From a virus, in the IMG/VR virus record IMGVR_UViG_3300025121_000776, positions 62,001 through 126,000 of that record: DNA of 64,000 bases. One strand, written 5' to 3'. Each line of letters opens with the position of its first letter. The stretch's first letter is position 1. Both the position numbers and the translations under genes were made by a program. The notes beneath the pieces were generated by a model. The model saw only the letters and a list, made by a program, of their open reading frames with translations, was not told the DNA's origin and ran no database searches. Below, piece after piece: positions 12,103 to 60,208 of the stretch.

Positions 12103-13002
12103 ATGGTAAAATTTGGAGATAGGGGAGCGGAAGTTTCGGAAGTACAAAAGCTGTTATCATTATTAGGTTATGATTTAATAGTTGATAATACTTTTGGAAA
12201 TAAAACTCTTAGGTCGATTAAAGCCTTTCAAAAAAAATACGGACTACTTCAAGATGGAGTTGTTGGAGATAAAACTTTAACAGCATTAAAAGCTGCACAA
12301 AAAAGAACCGCAAAAGAAGATGTTGTTTCAGTGACTCCTGTAGATTATGGCGACTTAGAAATAAGCACTGAATATATAATGCCCGATAATCAATATATAA
12401 AACAAGTTACACCTAAAAGTCAAATTTTCATCCACTTTACAGCAGGTGGTCCAAGTGCAAAAAACACAATTAACTATTGGGAAGGAGATGAAACAAGAGT
12501 CGCAACATCATTTGTAGTAGACGGTAATTCTGGAATAGCATATGAAGCTTATAATCCAGATTATTGGGGGTTTCATTTGGGAATTAAAGGAACAAATGGA
12601 AAACTTGATAAAGCCTCTGTTGGCATAGAGATATGTGCTTATGGCCCTTTGATTAAAAAAGGAGATGAATATTTTGCTTGGCCAAACAACTACACGACAA
12701 AAGTTTCCTCAGAGAATGTTTATACATTAGATGTGCCATTTAGGGGATATAAATATTATTATAAATATACCGACAAACAACTTGAAAATTTGGAACATCT
12801 TTTATTGTTTTTAGTTAAAAAATACAACATAAAAGTTCAAGACAATTTTAACGCATCATGGTTGGACTACAATCAAGAGCTTATTGATAAATGTTTGCCT
12901 GGAATATGGTCTCACACAAATGTAAGAAAAGATAAATTTGATTCATATCCAGACGAGAGATTGTTTGAAATACTTAATAAAATTTCTAAAGAAGTAAATT
13001 AA
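12103..13002 (+). CDS. Endolysin: peptidoglycan-binding domain plus N-acetylmuramoyl-L-alanine amidase
   Basis: Residues 1-~65 are a PG_binding_1 domain (GDRGAEVSEVQKLLSLLGY, then IKAFQKKYGLLQDGVVGDKT). From ~105 an Amidase_2 domain follows, with zinc-ligand motifs IHFTAGG, YWGFHLG and, near the end, a histidine in the WSHTNVR motif, plus the conserved 'SVGIEICAYG'. It cleaves the bond between muramic acid and the first peptide residue to release progeny. The N-terminal binding, C-terminal catalytic order is typical of phages of Gram-negative hosts. No signal peptide is visible, so export would need a holin, not identified here. Late expression is expected and a TATTTATA box precedes it. Confidence 0.92.
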   Translation: MVKFGDRGAEVSEVQKLLSLLGYDLIVDNTFGNKTLRSIKAFQKKYGLLQDGVVGDKTLTALKAAQKRTAKEDVVSVTPVDYGDLEISTEYIMPDNQYIKQVTPKSQIFIHFTAGGPSAKNTINYWEGDETRVATSFVVDGNSGIAYEAYNPDYWGFHLGIKGTNGKLDKASVGIEICAYGPLIKKGDEYFAWPNNYTTKVSSENVYTLDVPFRGYKYYYKYTDKQLENLEHLLLFLVKKYNIKVQDNFNASWLDYNQELIDKCLPGIWSHTNVRKDKFDSYPDERLFEILNKISKEVN

Positions 13003-41132: not shown

Positions 41133-42332
41133 ATGAGAACAAAATCTTTGGAACCAGTAAATAAAAATTCAATTCTTTGGGCGGATTTATATAAGTTTAC
41201 AATGTGTTGGGCAATTATTAAATTTTTCCCCGAAGCAAAAGTGAGATATGAATTTATTGACCGAAACGATACGGTTTATCCAGATGAATTTGCAGTTGAG
41301 TTAAGAAAAATAGTAAATAACTATAGTCAAAAAAGATTATCTAAACAGCGTAAGGTTGAGTTTGCGAAAGCATGTCCATTCTTGCCAGCTGCTTTTTTTG
41401 ATTTTCTCGAAGGCTACATATATGACCCAAGTGAGGTCGGAATTATTCAAACAGGTGGAAAATTATCAATTCAAATTGCTGGATACTGGTACAGAACTGT
41501 TATGTGGGAAACTACACTAATGGAAGATATTTCTGAGTTATATTTTAATATGACAGGCCAAAGCGATGATAAAGTAGATATTGAGGGCGCCCTACGAAAA
41601 ACTGCAGATAAAACATCTTTATTTCACTTAAATAGCGCACAAGTTGCTGACTTCGGAACAAGAAGAGCAAAGTCAAAAGATATGCATATAGCAATGATTG
41701 ATGTGATGACAAACTCATTAATGTATAAGAATTTTATTGGCTCAAGCAATGTTGAACTTGCACTATATAATGATATTAAAGTAATTGGAACTTATGCACA
41801 TGAATGGGTTTCTGGAATAGGTGCAATGTTTGGATATGCTCATGCAAATAGAATTGCAATGGAAAAATGGTCAGAAACATATAATGGGAATTTAGGTATT
41901 GCTTTAACTGACACATTTACCACAGATGCTTTCTTGGCAGATTTTGATTCTAAATATGCAAATCTTTTCACTGGAGTAAGACACGACAGTAGTGACCCCT
42001 TCGTTTTTACAGATAAAATTATTGACCACTATAAAAAACTTGGTATTGACCCGACTACAAAAACAATCGTTTATTCTGATGGTTTGAATCCAGAAATGGT
42101 TGTTAAATTACAGGATTACCGTAGGGGTGAAATCAGAAAATCATATGGTATTGGAACTAATTTAACAAATGATATTGATGGAGTTAAACCTTTAAACATT
42201 GTTGTTAAACTTCTTGAAATAAATGGAATGGCATCTGTTAAATTATCTGACTCTCCAACGAAACACGTAGGTGACCCAGAAACAATTAAATTTATTAAAT
42301 GGCAGAATTCTCAAAGATTAATGCAAAAATAA
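41133..42332 (+). CDS. pncB: Nicotinate phosphoribosyltransferase
   Basis: Joins nicotinic acid and PRPP to give nicotinate mononucleotide, the committed step of the Preiss-Handler NAD salvage route. Recognisable blocks: 'LWADLYKFTMCWAI' at the start, 'WETTLMEDISELYFN', 'DFGTRRAKS', 'GSSNVELALYNDIKVIGTYAHEW' with the catalytic His, 'ALTDTFTTDAFLADF', 'GVRHDSSDP', 'IVYSDGLNP' and 'YGIGTNLTND'. Length (399 aa) is that of bacterial PncB. It heads an operon with the Nudix and CorA-like genes. With the nicotinamidase and NadE elsewhere in the window it forms most of the salvage pathway. Confidence 0.93.
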   Translation: MRTKSLEPVNKNSILWADLYKFTMCWAIIKFFPEAKVRYEFIDRNDTVYPDEFAVELRKIVNNYSQKRLSKQRKVEFAKACPFLPAAFFDFLEGYIYDPSEVGIIQTGGKLSIQIAGYWYRTVMWETTLMEDISELYFNMTGQSDDKVDIEGALRKTADKTSLFHLNSAQVADFGTRRAKSKDMHIAMIDVMTNSLMYKNFIGSSNVELALYNDIKVIGTYAHEWVSGIGAMFGYAHANRIAMEKWSETYNGNLGIALTDTFTTDAFLADFDSKYANLFTGVRHDSSDPFVFTDKIIDHYKKLGIDPTTKTIVYSDGLNPEMVVKLQDYRRGEIRKSYGIGTNLTNDIDGVKPLNIVVKLLEINGMASVKLSDSPTKHVGDPETIKFIKWQNSQRLMQK

Positions 42333-44917: not shown

Positions 44918-45739
44918 ATGAAAGCATTAGATTATTCAAAAGTTGAAGCTCATATTACTGAATGGTTAAATGAGCAAGCAAAAAAAGCAAAAGTAGAAGG
45001 GTTCATTATTGGAATATCTGGCGGAGTTGATTCTGCAGTTGTTTCCACTTTGGCTGCGAAAACTGGATTGCCATTATATACCATACAAATGCCTATTCGC
45101 CAAAGGTCAGATGAAGTTAATAGAGCTACTTCACACATTATTTGGTTAATGGAAAATTTTCCAAATGTTTCTACGCTTGAAACAAATTTAACATCTACAT
45201 TCGAGTCATTTCTTGGAAATGTTGAAAAAGTTGAAGATGAAGAAATGCAACATTTAGCTGAAGCAAATACCAGGTCAAGACTTAGAATGGTTAATTTATA
45301 TTATTATTCATGCATTAAACACTGTTTAGTACTTGGAACTGGAAACAAAGTAGAAGATTTTGGAGTTGGATTTTGTACAAAGGGAGGTGACTCTCAAGTA
45401 GATATATCACCTATTGGAGATTTGATGAAATCAGAAGTTCGTGCACTTGGAAAACACATGGGAATTAACTTGGAAATTGTAAATGCAATTCCATCTGATG
45501 GTTTATGGGATGACAATAGAGGTGATGAGTATCAATTAAAAGCAACTTATGATGAATTGGAGTGGGCAATGGAATATATTGAAAATAATTCAAGACATTT
45601 TGCATATTCCCCAGAAGATTTAAACTTATTATCTGAAAGACAACAAGCAGTCTTGTTAATTTATAAGACAAGACATTTTGCAAATGCACATAAAATGGAA
45701 ATGCCCCCTATATGTAATTTAAGCGAGTTTAGGAAATAA
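44918..45739 (+). CDS. nadE: NAD synthetase, ammonia-dependent
   Basis: Amidates nicotinate adenine dinucleotide to NAD, the final step of the deamidated route that PncB begins. The PP-loop 'SGGVDSA' (34-40) binds ATP; 'NTRSRLRMVNLYYYS', 'LVLGTGNKVED', 'FTK'-like 'FCTKGGDSQVDISPIGDL' and 'IPSDGLW' follow as in bacterial NadE. At 273 residues it lacks the glutaminase domain, so it uses ammonia. It has its own CGTATA promoter. The C-terminus overlaps a convergent homing-endonuclease gene by 21 bases. Confidence 0.94.
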   Translation: MKALDYSKVEAHITEWLNEQAKKAKVEGFIIGISGGVDSAVVSTLAAKTGLPLYTIQMPIRQRSDEVNRATSHIIWLMENFPNVSTLETNLTSTFESFLGNVEKVEDEEMQHLAEANTRSRLRMVNLYYYSCIKHCLVLGTGNKVEDFGVGFCTKGGDSQVDISPIGDLMKSEVRALGKHMGINLEIVNAIPSDGLWDDNRGDEYQLKATYDELEWAMEYIENNSRHFAYSPEDLNLLSERQQAVLLIYKTRHFANAHKMEMPPICNLSEFRK

Positions 45740-51769: not shown

Positions 51770-52867
51770 ATGAAAACTATTCTAATGGCTATCTCTGGCG
51801 GTATTTCCGCCTATAAAGCTGCTGATGTAATTAGTGGGCTTAAAAAAAATGGATTTGAGGTTCATGTTATTACAACAAAAAACGCTTTGAATTTTATTGC
51901 CCCCACAGTTATAGGTGCCGTCTCTGGCGGTCATTATGTAACTGATGAAGATGTAAATAAAATCAATCATATTAACGAAGCTCAAAATTGTGATGCATTC
52001 ATCTGCGTTCCAGCGACAGCAAATATCATTGCGAAATTTGCACATGGAATAGCAGATGATTTTGTTTCATCTACTTTCATAGCAATTCCAAGAGGGGTTC
52101 CGAAAATTATATGCCCAGCAATGAACACAGTAATGTTTGAAAGCGAAGCTTGTCTCATGAATTTAAAAACATTGCAAGAGAGGGGGTGTCATATTATTGA
52201 ACCTGTTAGCGGAGAACTTGCTTGCGGTGTTGTTGGAATTGGAAAGCTTCCAAAACCAAGAGATATCGTAAAAGAGGTTATTGAACTTTTTGACACAAGC
52301 AAGCCGTGGTTGTGGCCGCTTCACAAAATGACCCCAACAAAAACTACAGAAGATTCAAATTCATTTTTAAGAATAAGCTTGGAAAGAGAAGTTGAGATTC
52401 CTATAAAATATCACTTTGGTGCTTTTGGAGCCATGAGAAGATTTGACAGACATAGGGGAGTAGATTTATATGCTCCAGTTGGTACTCCTGTGTTTGCTGT
52501 ACAAAAGGGCATAGTTAGAGATATTCGTCCATGGACTGGAACAAATGCTGATTGTGATTGGTGGAATGACACCGATGCAATTTCTGTTGAAGGAGAAGAC
52601 GGACTCGTTGTTTATGGTGAATTGGAAGTAAATTCTGAACTAAAGATTGGAGATGAAGTTAAAGCTGGAGACTTATTGGGACTTGTTTTACGAGTTCTAA
52701 AAAAAGATAAAGGAAGACCAACTAGTATGCTTCATTTGGAACTAAGAAAACCAGGGTTTTACAGAAATATAGATAAAGAATGGAGTCAAGATTTACCAGA
52801 AGGTTTACTTGACCCAACTCCATTCCTTATAAGGGCAATGAAACAACATCATCAATTTAAAAAATAA
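51770..52867 (+). CDS. Phosphopantothenoylcysteine decarboxylase (CoaC) fused to an M23 peptidase-like domain (365 aa)
   Basis: Residues 1-~180 are a flavoprotein of the CoaC family: 'MAISGGISAYKAADVI', 'INHINEAQNCDAFICVPATANIIAKFAHGIADD' with the active-site His, 'CPAMNTVMF' and the substrate-clamp 'ELACGVVGIGKLP'. It decarboxylates 4'-phosphopantothenoylcysteine, step three of CoA synthesis. Residues ~220-355 match M23/LytM domains: 'RHRGVDLYAPVGTPVFAV' (H-x3-D), 'VKAGDLLGLVL' and 'MLHLEL' in place of H-x-H, so zinc binding may be lost. CoaB, the previous step, is encoded 1.5 kb downstream. The fusion is unusual and its purpose unknown. Confidence 0.82.
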   Translation: MKTILMAISGGISAYKAADVISGLKKNGFEVHVITTKNALNFIAPTVIGAVSGGHYVTDEDVNKINHINEAQNCDAFICVPATANIIAKFAHGIADDFVSSTFIAIPRGVPKIICPAMNTVMFESEACLMNLKTLQERGCHIIEPVSGELACGVVGIGKLPKPRDIVKEVIELFDTSKPWLWPLHKMTPTKTTEDSNSFLRISLEREVEIPIKYHFGAFGAMRRFDRHRGVDLYAPVGTPVFAVQKGIVRDIRPWTGTNADCDWWNDTDAISVEGEDGLVVYGELEVNSELKIGDEVKAGDLLGLVLRVLKKDKGRPTSMLHLELRKPGFYRNIDKEWSQDLPEGLLDPTPFLIRAMKQHHQFKK

Positions 52868-52871
52868 GTAT

Positions 52872-53333
52872 ATGAATAATTTTTTTAAAGCGTTATTCGA
52901 GTTATTTAAAACTCTATACTCAGAGTCGATGGGATTTAGAGAACACCACCTATATCTTAAAAAAGAAATCAAAAACATAATTCAAACCATTAACAAAGAA
53001 AATGGATTTGATGAAGATGAAAATTCTTTGGCCAACAAAAAAAAGTTTTATGTTTTAATGGTTATTTCTTATGTTTTCACTATAATAAGAAATTGTTTAC
53101 TTGTTGTTATTATAGGATTAATTATGGTTTTAGTGCAGTATATAAGTGGAGGAAGCACAATGACAGAAAGAGGAATAGAAATAATTGGAGTTGATAAGTT
53201 TTTTATTCTTTGGTTGATTTTTAGTATTTTAACTATGGTTTTATACTATATTTTAAAAATATCAATTAACATAATTGTAGAATTAATCCGATTTGTAATT
53301 AAATACATATATTCAAATGGAAAACATCTATAA
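52872..53333 (+). CDS. Membrane protein with two transmembrane helices (153 aa)
   Basis: Spans at about 59-88 (VLMVISYVFTIIRNCLLVVI plus IGLIMVLV) and 108-137 (FFILWLIFSILTMVLYYILKI), with a charged N-terminal domain. In the CoA unit, 4 bases after CoaC and overlapping the next gene by 17. Not recognised. Confidence 0.62.
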   Translation: MNNFFKALFELFKTLYSESMGFREHHLYLKKEIKNIIQTINKENGFDEDENSLANKKKFYVLMVISYVFTIIRNCLLVVIIGLIMVLVQYISGGSTMTERGIEIIGVDKFFILWLIFSILTMVLYYILKISINIIVELIRFVIKYIYSNGKHL

Positions 53334-53592
53334 TGGCTCTATAATAACACAAGAGCAAAAAGAAAAGCGGGGATTTTTATATATCGAACAGCTTGTTTTT
53401 AATGAAGGAGGGAAAAACATTCCCCGAACTATATACGAAAGAATAGATAAAGATATTGTAGAAAGAATAGAAACCGATATAAAATGCTTTCACGGAATTC
53501 CAACAGACTCAAAACTAGTATTTAAAGATTATAAACATTTTAGCAAAGCATTAAAAGAATTAGGAACTAAATTAAAAAATTATACAAAATAA
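53317..53592 (+). CDS. Hypothetical protein (91 aa)
   Basis: Charged protein with strand-like 'RGFLYIEQLVFNEGG' and a helical C-terminus. Overlaps both neighbours, so it is translationally coupled within the CoaC-CoaB unit. Unknown. Confidence 0.58.
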   Translation: MENIYNGSIITQEQKEKRGFLYIEQLVFNEGGKNIPRTIYERIDKDIVERIETDIKCFHGIPTDSKLVFKDYKHFSKALKELGTKLKNYTK

Positions 53593-54326
53593 TGGGCGGT
53601 ACAATTGGTGTTATAATCAGAGAAGAAGATGGTAAGATTCATAAAATGGCAAGATGGACAAATTCATTGCCAGGATTTACAGAAAGTATTCATTTTATTA
53701 ATAAAGAGCCAAATCATTTAAAAAATTATCTCAAAGTTTTTTATGAAATGGAATTGGATTATAAAAAAAACAAAAAAACCAAGAAGTTTAAGCATAATAT
53801 GACTGATGTGTATATTCCTTACAGCGGTCACATTGCTCCTCTTGATTATGGATTAGTGGTTATAGATTATCAAACAAATAATGTACTTCACTGTCAAGGA
53901 TATTCTTCTTTAAATGTTGTTTTATCAAGCGAAATTGAATATTTATATCGCCAAGACAAACATACACAGGAATCAGTTCAAGAATTAGTTGATGCGAGAA
54001 AAATAAAATGTTTATTGGTATTTGATAAAGATGAAAATGTTAAAGAGCTACAAGAAATTCCAGTAGAATATAAAACAATAAAAGATAAAACTGATGTTGA
54101 AAGATTAACTATTGTTTTAAATGAAAAAATTAACGAAGAAGACTACCACTTCAACAATGGTTATAAAATTGATATGTCGCCATGGACATTTACAAGATTT
54201 AAAGAAAGTAAAGAAGGTTTTATTGAGCTTAAAGAAGAAATAAAAAAACTTGGTCTCAAAATCACAAAAGAAGATGAAAAAATTTGGAAAGAGTATATTA
54301 ACTGTCGTTTTATAGAGGAGAAATAA
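53592..54326 (+). CDS. Hypothetical protein (244 aa) in the CoA unit
   Basis: Starts 'MGGTIGVIIREEDGKIHKM', a strand with Gly-rich turn, followed by a mixed fold with 'PYSGHIAPLDYGLVVIDY'. One base overlaps the preceding stop; CoaB begins 2 bases after. Position suggests a link to CoA or acyl-group metabolism but no motif supports it. Confidence 0.6.
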   Translation: MGGTIGVIIREEDGKIHKMARWTNSLPGFTESIHFINKEPNHLKNYLKVFYEMELDYKKNKKTKKFKHNMTDVYIPYSGHIAPLDYGLVVIDYQTNNVLHCQGYSSLNVVLSSEIEYLYRQDKHTQESVQELVDARKIKCLLVFDKDENVKELQEIPVEYKTIKDKTDVERLTIVLNEKINEEDYHFNNGYKIDMSPWTFTRFKESKEGFIELKEEIKKLGLKITKEDEKIWKEYINCRFIEEK

Positions 54327-54328
54327 TT

Positions 54329-54988
54329 ATGAAAGTTTTAATTACCAGCGGGGGAACACGTGAATATATTGACGATGTTAGAGTTTTAACAAACATAAGT
54401 ACGGGAAAGTTGGGTGCAACAATTGCAAATACATTTTTTGCAAATGCTTATCATAACAAAATAGAAAAGGTTTATTATATTTGTAGTAAAGGTTCATTTC
54501 CTGCAATTAAAGATGGAGATAAATTTATTGAAACAATTTATGCTGACAGCGTTCAAGAAGTTTATGATGTAATGGAAAAAATGGTTCCCCAGGTTGATGT
54601 GGTTATTCATGCAATGGCCTTAAGTGACTTTGGGTTTAAACCATCACATACAAAGTTAAAAAGTAATGACCCTCAAGCCTTCATAGATTCGCTCAGAGAC
54701 CGAATTATTATTAATCCAAAGGTTATCTCATTTATTAAAAAATGGAACCCCACAGTTAAACTAATAAGCTTTAAATTTGAAGTTGGCAAAACCAAAGAAG
54801 AGTTGATTGATATTGCTTATGAATCTTTAATTAAAAACGATGGAGATTTTGTTATAGCCAATGATAAAATAGAAATGAAAGAAAAGGGCAGTCATATAGC
54901 TTATATAATTAACAAAGATAAGAAAATTGTTGACTGTGATGGTAAGGATGATATAGCTAAACAATTGCTAAAAATATTATCTACTTAA
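54329..54988 (+). CDS. coaB: Phosphopantothenate-cysteine ligase
   Basis: Couples 4'-phosphopantothenate with cysteine to give the CoaC substrate. The stand-alone CoaB domain is recognised by 'VLITSGGTREYIDDVRVLTNISTGKLGATIA' start motifs, 'DVVIHAMALSDFGF', the K-x-K 'HTKLKS', 'NPKVISFIKKW', 'LISFKFEV' and 'DFVIANDK'. In most bacteria it is fused to CoaC; here the two are separate genes and CoaC has another partner. Only CoaB and CoaC are seen in the window; CoaA, CoaD and CoaE would come from the host or outside it. Confidence 0.9.
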   Translation: MKVLITSGGTREYIDDVRVLTNISTGKLGATIANTFFANAYHNKIEKVYYICSKGSFPAIKDGDKFIETIYADSVQEVYDVMEKMVPQVDVVIHAMALSDFGFKPSHTKLKSNDPQAFIDSLRDRIIINPKVISFIKKWNPTVKLISFKFEVGKTKEELIDIAYESLIKNDGDFVIANDKIEMKEKGSHIAYIINKDKKIVDCDGKDDIAKQLLKILST

Positions 54989-56231: not shown

Positions 56232-57041
56232 ATGAAAAAAAATGCATTATTAATTATTGACGGACAGAACGACTTTTGTAGCCCTTCGGGTGCTCTCTTC
56301 GTTCCTGGAGCAGACCATGATATGGAGCGTCTAGCTAATTTTATTAAAAGAAATCAAACAAAAATTGGTTATATTGGTTTGACCCAAGATAGCCATATGG
56401 TTCTTGATATTAGTCATCCCCCATTTTGGCAGGATAAAGACGGAAATTCTCCAAATCCATTTACTATTATTACAGCTCAAAACGTAAAAGATGGAACGTG
56501 GACTCCAAAATTTTATCCACTGGCCGCTCTTAAATATTTAGAAGACCTTGAAGCTCAAGGGGAATTTCCACATTGTATATGGCCAATTCATTGTGTTGAT
56601 GGCAGTGAAGGTGCAGCTATTTTTCCAGTTCTTATGAACTCTGTAAAAGAATGGTCAGCTTCTCAGTGTTTATTTCACAAAATTGTTAAAAAGGGAGTTC
56701 ATCCTTTAACCGAGCACTTCGGCGTGTTTCAAGCAAACATTCCAATTCCAGGCGAGGACGGAACACAATTCAACGACAGGTTAGCAAAAATTCTTAATGA
56801 ATATGATACTGTGTATTTCGCAGGAGAAGCTAAAACTCACTGTACCGCTACTTCTTTAAAACAAGCAATGAAGTTTGATAAAAACCTTGCTAAAAAATTC
56901 GTTATCCTTGAAGATTGTATGTCTCCTGTTCCAGGAGAAGCTGCACCAGGACTTACCTTTGAAAAATTGGCTCAGCCAATCTATGATGATGCTAAAGCTC
57001 TTGGCATTCAATTTGTAAAAAGCACAGATGTTACACTATAA
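56232..57041 (+). CDS. Nicotinamidase (PncA-like cysteine hydrolase, 269 aa)
   Basis: Deamidates nicotinamide to nicotinic acid, the PncB substrate. Asp10 (IIDGQNDFC), metal site 'LTQDSH' (D-x-H), 'WPIHCVDGSEGA', and catalytic Cys204 in 'FAGEAKTHCTATS' give the D-K-C triad and zinc-binding layout of nicotinamidases, with 'WTPKFYP' typical of the longer members. First gene of an operon with the vWA, PP2C, kinase and rSAM genes, all under the CGTATA promoter. Other isochorismatase-like substrates cannot be excluded, but the WPxHC motif and PncB/NadE context favour nicotinamide. Confidence 0.85.
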   Translation: MKKNALLIIDGQNDFCSPSGALFVPGADHDMERLANFIKRNQTKIGYIGLTQDSHMVLDISHPPFWQDKDGNSPNPFTIITAQNVKDGTWTPKFYPLAALKYLEDLEAQGEFPHCIWPIHCVDGSEGAAIFPVLMNSVKEWSASQCLFHKIVKKGVHPLTEHFGVFQANIPIPGEDGTQFNDRLAKILNEYDTVYFAGEAKTHCTATSLKQAMKFDKNLAKKFVILEDCMSPVPGEAAPGLTFEKLAQPIYDDAKALGIQFVKSTDVTL

Positions 57042-57052
57042 TTTTAAAAACA

Positions 57053-57766
57053 ATGGATAACAATAAAGTGAATTTCGATTTCGGTGGTGACGCCGACTTT
57101 AATCCCGAAAATATCGAGGTAGAAGAAACAATCAATGCAGTATTTGTAGTTGACCTGTCTGCCTCTATGGGCGAAGAAGTAACTCTTAAAGGCGGCACAA
57201 CCTCAACAAGATGCGATGAGCTTAATAAAGCTGTTAATGAATTTGTTGAGAATATGTCAAAAAGCCATGTTAAAGACCGTTTGTTAGTATCAACTATTGT
57301 TTTTGATGCAAAACCAGAAGTTCTTACAGGCTTCCAACCCGTAACAGAAATTGAAGAATTTAAACTTACTCCAAAACACGGTAATACCGCACTTTATGGA
57401 GCCGTAAGACTTGGTTTGGACAAAGCTATTGACTACAGAAACTCTCTGTTAAAAACAGGCGTAAAAGCAAAAACTATCCTTTTTGTTGTTACTGATGGTG
57501 AAAACAATGCTTCTCCACAAAGTGATGCAGAATATGTGAAAGTTAAGTTACAGGAACTAAACAAAGAAGAACAGAATATTATGACATTCTCTTCAGTTCT
57601 TTTGGGAATTGGCGAACAGGCTAATTTTAAACAAGCATTTGATGATTTAGGCTTACATGCCCTAGCTGAACTTGGTGATGATATCAGAAAAGCTGTATCT
57701 ATTATCAGTAGCTCAGTATCAAGTGTTTCAAACGGGCAAAACATTTCTCAGAAATTAAATTTCTAA
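57053..57766 (+). CDS. von Willebrand factor A (TerY-like) protein (237 aa)
   Basis: A cytosolic vWA domain with an intact MIDAS: 'VFVVDLSASMGEE' (D-x-S-x-S), 'GNTALYGAV' and 'FVVTDGENN'. Such proteins bind Mg2+ and partner proteins. Its order next to a PP2C and a kinase is the TerY-P triad described by comparative genomics in tellurite/stress-response loci. Start 11 bases after the nicotinamidase; PP2C starts 2 bases after its stop. Confidence 0.88.
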   Translation: MDNNKVNFDFGGDADFNPENIEVEETINAVFVVDLSASMGEEVTLKGGTTSTRCDELNKAVNEFVENMSKSHVKDRLLVSTIVFDAKPEVLTGFQPVTEIEEFKLTPKHGNTALYGAVRLGLDKAIDYRNSLLKTGVKAKTILFVVTDGENNASPQSDAEYVKVKLQELNKEEQNIMTFSSVLLGIGEQANFKQAFDDLGLHALAELGDDIRKAVSIISSSVSSVSNGQNISQKLNF

Positions 57767-57768
57767 AA

Positions 57769-58545
57769 ATGTTCGAAGTTAAAGCCAGAAAAGTAGTAAG
57801 GCGAGGGAGAGCTCATGACCAACGTTGTGAAGACGATTCCCTCGTCTTCTCTTATAATCAAATTTCAGTTATTGCAGTATTTGATGGATGCTCTGATGGA
57901 ACGGATTCTTATTTTGCATCTGGTTTATTTGCTAAAATATTAAAAAAAATAGCAATTGAGGAAGAAAATTTTTTTAAACAAATCAACGAAGAAACAAGTC
58001 TTGAAGATATAGTAAATGTAATAATGTGTTCCTTTTTTTATGAACTAAAGAAGGCAAAATATTATTTAAAGCTTGATGATTCAGAAATATTGTCAACAAT
58101 AGTTCTATCTGCCATTAATTTAAAAACAAAACAATCCTTTTCTATTATTATTGGAGATGGAAGTGTTTATGTTGACGGAGAAATTAATACAATACAACCA
58201 GAAAAAAACGCACCTCGATATATAGCTTATTTTCTTGGAAAAAAATATGAAGATTTTTGGAGTGATGATGTTAATAAATATAAAGCCAAAGTAAAAGATA
58301 CAATAGCTGTAATGAGTGATGGAATTGACTCATTTAGACATTATAGCGAAAACAGATATGTAAACGAAACTGAAAAGGCTGATATTATTCATCGTTTTTT
58401 TAAAAGCGGATATCTTCTTGACAATAAAGTTGGGCTTGCAAGAATTTGTAATATTCTTGACAGTGAACATTTTGCTCCAAGTGATGATTTATCTATTGCC
58501 CATATAACTTTCATAGAAATTCCAGAACAAGATGAAACTATATAA
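57769..58545 (+). CDS. PP2C-family protein phosphatase (258 aa)
   Basis: All metal-coordinating blocks are present: 'RGRAHDQRCEDD' (D at the start), 'VIAVFDGCSDGTDS' (DG), 'IIIGDGSVYVD' (GD), 'AVMSDGIDSF' (SDG) and 'SDDLSIAHI' (DD). It removes phosphate from Ser/Thr residues, probably of the vWA protein or of targets of the kinase that follows. Overlaps the kinase start by 14 bases, so the two are expressed together in fixed ratio. Confidence 0.88.
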   Translation: MFEVKARKVVRRGRAHDQRCEDDSLVFSYNQISVIAVFDGCSDGTDSYFASGLFAKILKKIAIEEENFFKQINEETSLEDIVNVIMCSFFYELKKAKYYLKLDDSEILSTIVLSAINLKTKQSFSIIIGDGSVYVDGEINTIQPEKNAPRYIAYFLGKKYEDFWSDDVNKYKAKVKDTIAVMSDGIDSFRHYSENRYVNETEKADIIHRFFKSGYLLDNKVGLARICNILDSEHFAPSDDLSIAHITFIEIPEQDETI

Positions 58546-60208
58546 TAAAATAGGCACTCTGGTCAACGTTGATGAAAGCAAAGAGATTGCTAGGGGTGGA
58601 GAAGGAATGATTATAGATATGGGGCATGGAAAAGCCGCCAAAATTTATCATGATACCAAAAACGCATCTTTCACCGAATCAAAACTTCAACATTTATATG
58701 GACTTGATAGCTCTGTTTTTATAAGACCAGAAGAAATTCTTTTTTATAAAAACAAAAAAATAGCTGGATTCATTATGAATATGTTGCCTAAAAATTTCTT
58801 TCCTCTATATTCAGCCTTTAGTTATAATTTCTGTGCCACAAATGGATTGACAGATAAAATAAAATTACAAATAATTAAAACCATTATAAAAAGCATTAAT
58901 TCAGCTCACTCAAAAGATATTATTATTGGAGATTTTAACCCCTTTAATATAATGCTGGACGATAAAGGTACCACTTTCTTTATTGATACAGATTCATATC
59001 AAACTCCAGGGTCAGTGCATTCTGGCAAATTATTAGATGATATCAGAGACCATTTAAAACATGGCGTAATAAATAAAGAGAGTGACTACTATGCTCTTGC
59101 GGTAATAGTGTTTAATTTTCTAACTAATATACACCCCTTTAAAGGCTCACATTCAATTTATAAAAGCCTTCCAGAACGTGCAATTCAAAAAATTACAGTA
59201 TTTGATAATGACCCACACCTAATTGTTCCAAAGTGTTATCACCCTATCCAAGACAAATATTTAATGGAACAATTTAAGAGAATATTTAAAGATGGGGAAA
59301 GATTTGCAATTAGCCTTGATGCTACAACAGATATTATTCATGTAATTAATATCGACAAAGTTATTGAAAAAGAAGGAGAATTAACAATTACGCCAATGTT
59401 AAGAAATGTTGAAATAAGATATGTCAATTGCAGTAACAACCTTGCTTGTGTAGCACTTAAAGACGAAATTATTGTTTATAGCGTGAGAGATAGGGGCTTC
59501 TACAAAGAACTTGGCAGAATACCAAGAACAAGTAAAGATTTAGCTCCGCTTCCAACTGATAAAAACTTATTTGTATTTGAAGATAAAAAGTTCTACAAAT
59601 ACGACCTTGACACCTTTCAAAGAACTGAAATGGATGATATGGGTATTGAAAACATGGTTGTTGCAAAGCAATATGGAAATATATTTGTTGTAATTGAAGA
59701 AAATAAAATGTTTACGTTATATTTGGATGATTCTGTTGGAACACACATTAGATTTAAAACAAAAGAAGTGTTCGGAAACAGTTTTAAAAAGTATAATGGT
59801 ATGATGCAAAATTTTGGCCAGAACACTTACTTAAGAGTAAATAATAATGATAATCTCGATACAATTATCTATGATGATGTATTAAGTGATGTTTACCAAG
59901 ATGGAGATATGGGAATTGCCCAGACTGTAAAAAAAGGAAAAATAAATTTCGACCTATTCAAAATTAATGGCCTTAAACTTGAAAAACATTCTTACCCCCT
60001 TAATTCTATCAGACACTTCGGTTATAATCCTGGCAACTTCATTATTATGCCAGAGGATAATCAATTAATATTCCTTAATCACAGCACATTGGAACCAATT
60101 GCTAAGTTTAAGTGTAGCATTGCCGATGAATCAACACAGGTGTTTTATACAAGGGGAGGAATCTTATTGAACGATTCGAAGAATTTATATATGGTAAACA
60201 AAAAGTAG
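58532..60208 (+). CDS. Protein kinase with C-terminal beta-propeller-like region (558 aa)
   Basis: Residues 1-~290 are a kinase fold: Gly-rich loop 'IARGGEGMIIDM', Lys in 'GKAAKIYHD', catalytic segment 'DIIIGDFNPFNIMLD' and, in the DFG position, 'FFIDTDSYQTPG', as in kinases of TerY-P loci that lack classical HRD/DFG wording. Residues ~300-558 are repeated strands ('LFVFEDKKFYKYDLD', 'GNIFVVIEENKMFTLYLDD') suggesting a propeller for substrate binding. It is the third member of the vWA-PP2C-kinase triad. Confidence 0.82.
   Translation: MKLYNKIGTLVNVDESKEIARGGEGMIIDMGHGKAAKIYHDTKNASFTESKLQHLYGLDSSVFIRPEEILFYKNKKIAGFIMNMLPKNFFPLYSAFSYNFCATNGLTDKIKLQIIKTIIKSINSAHSKDIIIGDFNPFNIMLDDKGTTFFIDTDSYQTPGSVHSGKLLDDIRDHLKHGVINKESDYYALAVIVFNFLTNIHPFKGSHSIYKSLPERAIQKITVFDNDPHLIVPKCYHPIQDKYLMEQFKRIFKDGERFAISLDATTDIIHVINIDKVIEKEGELTITPMLRNVEIRYVNCSNNLACVALKDEIIVYSVRDRGFYKELGRIPRTSKDLAPLPTDKNLFVFEDKKFYKYDLDTFQRTEMDDMGIENMVVAKQYGNIFVVIEENKMFTLYLDDSVGTHIRFKTKEVFGNSFKKYNGMMQNFGQNTYLRVNNNDNLDTIIYDDVLSDVYQDGDMGIAQTVKKGKINFDLFKINGLKLEKHSYPLNSIRHFGYNPGNFIIMPEDNQLIFLNHSTLEPIAKFKCSIADESTQVFYTRGGILLNDSKNLYMVNKK

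What the first reader, a model, noticed from the sequence alone, without database searches (positions are those of the whole stretch)
51770..54988. CoA biosynthesis genes in a phage: CoaC fused to an M23-like domain, and stand-alone CoaB
Seen: a CoaC flavoprotein followed in the same polypeptide by a LytM/M23-type domain with H-x3-D but LHLEL instead of the usual HxH; CoaB is a separate gene three ORFs downstream. Known: bacteria usually have a CoaBC fusion. Inferred: boosts phosphopantetheine/CoA during infection; the M23 domain may have been recruited as a non-catalytic binding or oligomerisation module, or link decarboxylase to the cell wall.
Basis: partly seen in the sequence, partly recalled or inferred. 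Interest (0 to 1): 0.75.

Follow-up and report, generated by a model that had tools for sequence, protein, structure and literature searches.

The report
Phage CoaC fused to M23-like domain
A very large bacterial virus carries two enzymes for making coenzyme A, one of them joined to a protein fold normally used to cut bacterial cell walls; the same joining recurs in many giant phages, and its altered but strictly conserved metal site suggests the fold now does a different, still unknown, job in cofactor metabolism.

Summary
Window 51770-52867 encodes a 365-aa protein: an FMN-type phosphopantothenoylcysteine decarboxylase (CoaC, residues 1-175), a flexible linker, and an M23/LytM-fold domain (209-365). 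A separate CoaB lies at 54329-54988. It is not an assembly chimera: the same fusion occurs in at least 10 other phage records, including the curated 735-kb megaphage LR756501 and an 81%-identical relative. In other phages the three functions are separate neighbouring genes in several orders. The same M23-like domain is fused to two CoaC types, bacterial and HAL3/human-like. It belongs to a distinct, largely phage-borne family. In 65 of 65 aligned members the three zinc ligands (H, D, H) are kept, while both catalytic histidines of M23 peptidases are replaced, by Glu (YGE) and Met (MLH). AlphaFold2 and Foldseek confirm the LytM fold. Phages with this domain carry CoaB-like genes far more often (21/50) than other large phages (0/41), and often CoaE (15/40 vs 0/41). 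Best reading: a phage CoA/phosphopantetheine module in which a cell-wall-hydrolase fold was recruited as a zinc-binding, probably catalytic, cofactor-pathway domain. Its chemistry is not shown. A link to the cell wall is not supported.

The parts
51770..52294 (+). CoaC domain (phosphopantothenoylcysteine decarboxylase, FMN flavoprotein), residues 1-175 of the fusion; H67, N119, M122, C152 correspond to AtHAL3a H90, N142, M145, C175
   Evidence: Pfam Flavoprotein E 3.6e-29; coaBC_dfp partial match E 5.3e-49; alignment to 6tgv and AtHAL3; Foldseek 6tgv/1mvn
52295..52393 (+). Linker, residues 176-208, partly disordered in the model and the least constrained part
   Evidence: pLDDT below 50 at residues 177-179 and 196-202; dN 0.288, dS 0.675 against L012
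52394..52867 (+). M23/LytM-fold domain of the 'YGE/MLH' phage family, residues 209-365 plus stop
   Evidence: Pfam Peptidase_M23 E 4.5e-9; model pLDDT 94.9; Foldseek top hits LytM/M23, probability 1.00
52451..52465 (+). HRGVD: zinc-ligand motif HxxxD (H228, D232)
   Evidence: invariant in 65/65 family members
52613..52621 (+). YGE (Y282-E284): E284 at the position of the catalytic His of LytM (H260)
   Evidence: 65/65; aligned to YAH/YGH of zoocin A and 8s3m; H260 role from PMC5519744
52727..52735 (+). MLH (M320-H322): M320 replaces the catalytic His of HxH (LytM H291), H322 is the third zinc ligand
   Evidence: 65/65; aligned to HLH of 8s3m
52872..53333 (+). 153-aa hydrophobic (apparently membrane) protein between fusion and CoaB, absent at this place in L012
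53317..53592 (+). 91-aa ORF; a 93-aa homologue sits between the fusion and CoaB in the relative L012
53592..54326 (+). 244-aa ORF of unknown function, absent at this place in L012
54329..54988 (+). CoaB: stand-alone phosphopantothenate--cysteine ligase (DFP domain), streptococcal CoaB type
   Evidence: Pfam DFP E 2.9e-27; PRK06732 E 1.3e-50; PDB 2gk4 best

Best explanation
This is a phage-encoded coenzyme A / 4'-phosphopantetheine module. CoaB joins phosphopantothenate to cysteine. The CoaC half of the fusion oxidatively decarboxylates the product to 4'-phosphopantetheine, which host or phage CoaD and CoaE turn into CoA. The C-terminal M23-like domain is not a cell-wall hydrolase. It is a zinc-binding LytM fold whose two catalytic histidines were replaced family-wide by Glu and Met, most likely a small-molecule amide/peptide hydrolase (or a related metal-dependent step) using E284 near the zinc, acting on a substrate or product of the CoaB-type ligase. 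Shown: the fusion, its recurrence, the predicted fold, retained zinc ligands, replaced catalytic residues, purifying selection, genetic linkage to CoaB/CoaC. Inferred: enzyme activities, metal content, substrate.
For: Fusion recurs in 11 phage records counting this one, with two different CoaC types: P0001 scores 98 bits to CoaBC vs 63 to HAL3, L054 scores 172 bits to human PPCDC vs 71 to CoaBC. Separate neighbouring genes in three orders: coaC-M23-coaB (L015), coaB-M23-coaC (L016), coaC-coaB-M23 (L042/L044). CoaB is the commonest neighbour family by far (19 loci, next 7). CoaB-like DFP over cut-off in 21/50 records with the domain vs 0/41 control large phages, Fisher p 4e-7. Reverse scan: the domain within 8 kb of 7 of about 12 distinct viral CoaB loci. 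CoaE 15/40 vs 0/41, often next to CoaD. Catalytic residues of PPC decarboxylase intact. dN/dS against L012: M23 domain about 0.085, CoaC about 0.16. Invariant R223, H228, D232, W265, T268, Y282, E284, M320, H322. LytM fold.
Against: No biochemical data. 28 of 50 records with the domain show no CoaB-like gene at all, so its role is not confined to CoA, or the phage relies on host CoaBC. The domain also sits next to DFP-aldolase-II proteins, a methyltransferase and a semialdehyde dehydrogenase, so the pathway may be broader than CoA. CoaE also occurs in megaphages where the domain was not found: LR756500 by profile search, LR756502 and LR745206 by tblastn only. No CoaX pantothenate kinase was found. 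E284 as a base is inferred from alignment; no coordinates were available to measure distances. The control phages are on average smaller and of other lineages.
Confidence: 0.5

Rival explanations
1. The M23-like domain is a non-catalytic module (structural zinc, oligomerisation or ligand sensing) that stabilises or regulates CoaC, much as degenerate LytM domains such as EnvC act as regulators.
For: Both catalytic histidines essential in LytM are replaced in every member. The domain stands where CoaB sits in bacterial CoaBC fusions. The linker is flexible.
Against: All three zinc ligands and several other polar residues are invariant in 65 members at roughly 38-53% identity to the window's domain, L012 apart, and many members are stand-alone proteins or fused to other enzymes, which suggests an activity of its own.
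Confidence: 0.3
2. The domain is a peptidoglycan hydrolase (lysin or virion lysin) that happens to be fused to CoaC or linked to the cell wall.
For: Pfam and PHROGs match it to M23 endolysins. Foldseek finds LytM, lysostaphin and phage lysins.
Against: Catalytic His pair absent in all members. No wall-binding domain detected. The phage has its own Amidase_2 plus PG_binding_1 protein at 12103-13002. The partners are cytosolic CoaB/CoaC enzymes.
Confidence: 0.07
3. CoaB/CoaC here act on something other than phosphopantothenate, for example a cysteine-containing peptide or a nucleotide modification, and the M23 domain processes that product.
For: CoaC folds also include peptidyl-cysteine decarboxylases such as EpiD and MrsD. 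The same M23 family sits beside DFP-aldolase-II fusions and a methyltransferase. PanK of the CoaX type is absent.
Against: Best matches are the CoA enzymes, with all PPCDC catalytic residues. CoaD and CoaE genes occur in related phages, for example all four steps in LR756501.
Confidence: 0.1
4. The fusion is an assembly or gene-calling artefact.
For: None beyond the unusual architecture.
Against: Same open frame in 10 other records, including independent IMG/VR contigs and LR756501; no internal stop.
Confidence: 0.01

Closest known systems
Bacterial CoaBC (Dfp; e.g. M. smegmatis CoaBC 6tgv, E. coli Dfp)
   Same: CoaC flavoprotein fold, catalytic motifs and a C-terminal fused partner; CoaB encoded nearby
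   Different: Fused partner is an M23-like domain instead of CoaB; CoaB is a separate gene
Eukaryotic PPCDC / HAL3 (human PPCDC 1qzu, AtHAL3a)
   Same: Monofunctional PPC decarboxylase; six related phage fusions carry a CoaC of this type
   Different: The window's CoaC is bacterial-type; HAL3 proteins are not known to me to carry an M23 domain
M23 peptidases (LytM, lysostaphin, zoocin A, phage M23 endolysins)
   Same: LytM fold and three zinc ligands (H, D, H)
   Different: Both catalytic histidines replaced by Glu and Met; no wall-binding or export parts; linked to cofactor genes
Degenerate LytM domains (EnvC) and LECT2
   Same: M23 fold without the full peptidase active site
   Different: Here the zinc ligands and a new Glu are strictly conserved (own knowledge for the function of EnvC and LECT2; both appear)
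Viral CoaD/CoaE auxiliary metabolic genes (snow viromes, PMC11097641; PhiMa05 CoaD, PMC8093824)
   Same: Phage-borne CoA biosynthesis genes
   Different: Those reports concern the last two steps; no paper found on phage CoaBC or on an M23 fusion

Membership tests
PPC decarboxylase (CoaC/PPCDC) | FMN-binding flavoprotein fold of the family | tested here: met
   Pfam 101.9 bits; Foldseek 6tgv E 9.7e-16, 1mvn TMt 0.89
PPC decarboxylase (CoaC/PPCDC) | Catalytic His90, PXMNXXM (N142, M145) and flap Cys175 of AtHAL3a | tested here: met
   H67, N119, M122, C152 by alignment to AtHAL3; residue roles from PMC9604783
PPC decarboxylase (CoaC/PPCDC) | Decarboxylates phosphopantothenoylcysteine | not testable with these tools
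   needs enzyme assay
Phosphopantothenate--cysteine ligase (CoaB) | DFP domain over curated cut-off and conserved N-terminal NxS(S/T)GxxG and KxK region | tested here: met
   DFP 96 bits against cut-off 22; N22, G26, K109, K111 invariant in the phage CoaB alignment
M23 metallopeptidase | LytM / duplicated-hybrid-motif fold | tested here: met
   Pfam 36.8 bits against 28.7; Foldseek probability 1.00
M23 metallopeptidase | Zinc ligands HxxxD and second His of HxH | tested here: met
   H228, D232, H322 in 65/65; metal binding itself not tested
M23 metallopeptidase | Two catalytic histidines (LytM H260, H291) | tested here: not met
   replaced by E284 and M320 in 65/65; alignments; roles in PMC5519744
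Bifunctional CoaBC | CoaC and CoaB in one polypeptide | tested here: not met
   separate genes; TIGR00521 matched only in halves, below cut-off

The most novel reading that the evidence does not exclude
The YGE/MLH domain is a new zinc enzyme derived from a cell-wall peptidase fold that performs a previously unrecognised step in CoA/phosphopantetheine or related CoaB-type ligase metabolism, spread by giant phages and fused independently to two kinds of CoaC.
Probability: 0.4. Interest if true: 0.8.

Novelty: new variant of a known kind. Interest (0 to 1): 0.6.

Why it matters
It suggests that giant phages carry most of the CoA pathway and have turned a wall-hydrolase fold into a conserved cofactor-pathway partner. 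It warns against annotating such genes as 'peptidase M23' or 'endolysin', as is done in PA5oct and XacN1. It also offers a compact, directly testable case of an enzyme fold changing function inside phage genomes.

Tried and rejected
Assembly chimera: rejected, the fusion is in 10 other records. Endolysin: rejected on missing catalytic residues and a separate amidase lysin. First control by terminase gave mostly short contigs and was replaced by a thymidylate synthase set. A specific CoaE-M23 link was considered and toned down, since CoaE also occurs in megaphages where the domain was not found. Type III pantothenate kinase: none in 47 records; types I and II were not searched. Tree of the domain: most CoaC-linked members cluster but L048 does not; branch supports were not printed, so the number of fusion events is left at 'two or more, or CoaC replacement'.

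Full report
What is there. The window is bases 62001-126000 of a 186,855-base IMG/VR virus record. The ORF at 51770-52867 encodes 365 residues: a Pfam Flavoprotein domain at 2-173 and a Peptidase_M23 domain at 227-329. CoaB is a separate gene at 54329-54988. Three ORFs lie between them; in the 81%-identical relative L012 only one of the three, a 91-93-aa ORF, is present, so fusion, small ORF and CoaB form a compact cluster.

Not a chimera. tblastn finds the full-length fusion (49% identity over 97%) in the 735-kb megaphage LR756501 and its duplicate record LR756503, with CoaB overlapping directly downstream. A profile scan of IMG/VR with the C-terminal domain gave 79 loci. CoaC-M23 fusions occur in L012, L014, L020, L033, L048, L054, L072, L078 and L082 besides LR756501 and the window. 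In L015, L016 and L042/L044 the three functions are separate neighbouring genes in three different orders.

CoaC. Alignment to AtHAL3 places H67, N119, M122 and C152 at H90, N142, M145 and C175, the residues needed for both half-reactions (PMC9604783). The AlphaFold2 model (mean pLDDT 89) matches CoaBC 6tgv and AtHAL3. Two CoaC types are fused to the same domain: the window's is bacterial-type (98 bits CoaBC, 63 HAL3), while that of L054 is like human PPCDC (172 vs 71 bits), and five others share its motifs. Two or more fusion events, or replacement of the CoaC half, are implied.

The M23-like domain. Modelled alone it reaches pLDDT 94.9, and the Foldseek PDB hits listed are LytM/M23 structures. 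In an alignment of 65 members the zinc ligands H228, D232 and H322 are invariant, and so are R223, T256, G257, W265, T268, Y282, G283, E284, V309, M320 and L321. In LytM H260 generates the nucleophile and H291 stabilises the transition state (PMC5519744). Alignment to zoocin A and 8s3m puts E284 and M320 at these positions. So the metal site is kept and the peptidase catalytic pair is lost throughout the family. Against L012 the M23 half is the most constrained part (dN 0.099, dS 1.16), more than CoaC (0.138, 0.87) or the linker (0.288, 0.67); dS is near saturation.

Distribution. A pattern scan of 84,980 species genomes gave 9 hits, and a profile search of 399 Pseudomonadota genomes gave none besides the seed genome. 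The family is thus mainly phage-borne, found in XacN1, PA5oct, RAS14, Milchi and metagenomic giants, where some members are annotated as peptidase M23 or hypothetical protein.

Linkage to CoA genes. Among neighbours of the domain CoaB is by far the commonest family (19 loci in the clustering, next 7). In 50 records with the domain, DFP/CoaB is over cut-off in 21 and Flavoprotein in 11. In 40 records CoaE is found in 15, often directly beside a CoaD-like gene; LR756501 has CoaB, CoaC, CoaD and CoaE. In a control of 41 large phages chosen mostly by thymidylate synthase, the domain is in 2, DFP in 0 and CoaE over cut-off in 0; Fisher p 4e-7 and 5e-6, with DFP still p 7e-5 against the 23 controls of at least 140 kb. 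The control is not matched for lineage, and CoaE occurs in megaphages where the domain was not found, so the CoaE association may reflect genome size. In reverse, 7 of about 12 distinct viral CoaB loci have the domain within 8 kb.

Other contexts. The domain also sits beside DFP-aldolase-II proteins (L037, L052, L131), is fused to a methyltransferase in L052, and in Novimethylophilus contig L130 forms a tight gene run: DFP-like, semialdehyde dehydrogenase, M23-like. The recurring partner is a DFP-type ligase, not CoaC alone.

Interpretation. The simplest reading is a cofactor module: the window also encodes NAPRTase, NAD synthase and a nicotinamidase-like protein. The lysin role is unlikely because the phage has an Amidase_2 protein with a peptidoglycan-binding domain elsewhere. 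Between an altered zinc enzyme and a passive module, the strict conservation of ligands plus a new Glu, and the many stand-alone members, favour an enzyme, but nothing here measures activity. Release of cysteine (the CoaB co-substrate) from a peptide, or hydrolysis of a pantetheine amide, are possible reactions; both are guesses.

Literature. coaD and coaE are reported as viral auxiliary genes (PMC11097641) and coaD in PhiMa05 (PMC8093824). No paper in the held library joins coaBC with auxiliary metabolic genes, or M23 with phage and CoaBC. The huge-phage paper has no mention of CoA in its main text.

Noticed in passing
window 41133-42332, 44918-45739, 56232-57041: NAD salvage genes: NAPRTase, NAD synthase and a nicotinamidase/isochorismatase-like protein; with CoaB/CoaC the phage looks rich in cofactor genes. 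No CTP_transf (NadD) match in the record.
   Followed up: partly
window 57053-60208: Three adjacent genes: vWA protein, PP2C-type phosphatase and kinase-like protein (kinase below Pfam cut-off), resembling vWA-PP2C-kinase triads.
   Followed up: no
L100, L107, L007, L111, L131: Fusions of a CoaB-like DFP domain with a class II aldolase/adducin-like domain in jumbo phages and one alphaproteobacterial contig; function unknown.
   Followed up: partly
L052 5944-7044: M23-like YGE/MLH domain fused to a class I methyltransferase, next to a DFP-aldolase-like gene.
   Followed up: partly
L130 4476-6507: Gene run DFP-like, semialdehyde dehydrogenase (ArgC-like), M23-like domain with touching ends in Novimethylophilus.
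   Followed up: partly
L139, L142, L147, L148, L151: Adjacent CoaE and CoaD genes in giant phages, including the 735-kb LR756501.
   Followed up: partly
L033, L048, L054, L072, L078, L082: Phage CoaC proteins of the HAL3/human PPCDC type.
   Followed up: partly
L156 6841-7308, L157: Close relative with CoaB and a truncated CoaC lacking the flap cysteine and the M23 domain.
   Followed up: partly
L008 4734-5549: Member of the M23-like family on an 800-kb Variovorax plasmid, without an annotated gene there (PLSDB's gene table is incomplete), near a SecA gene.
   Followed up: no
window 12103-13002: Amidase_2 with PG_binding_1, the likely endolysin of this phage.
   Followed up: yes
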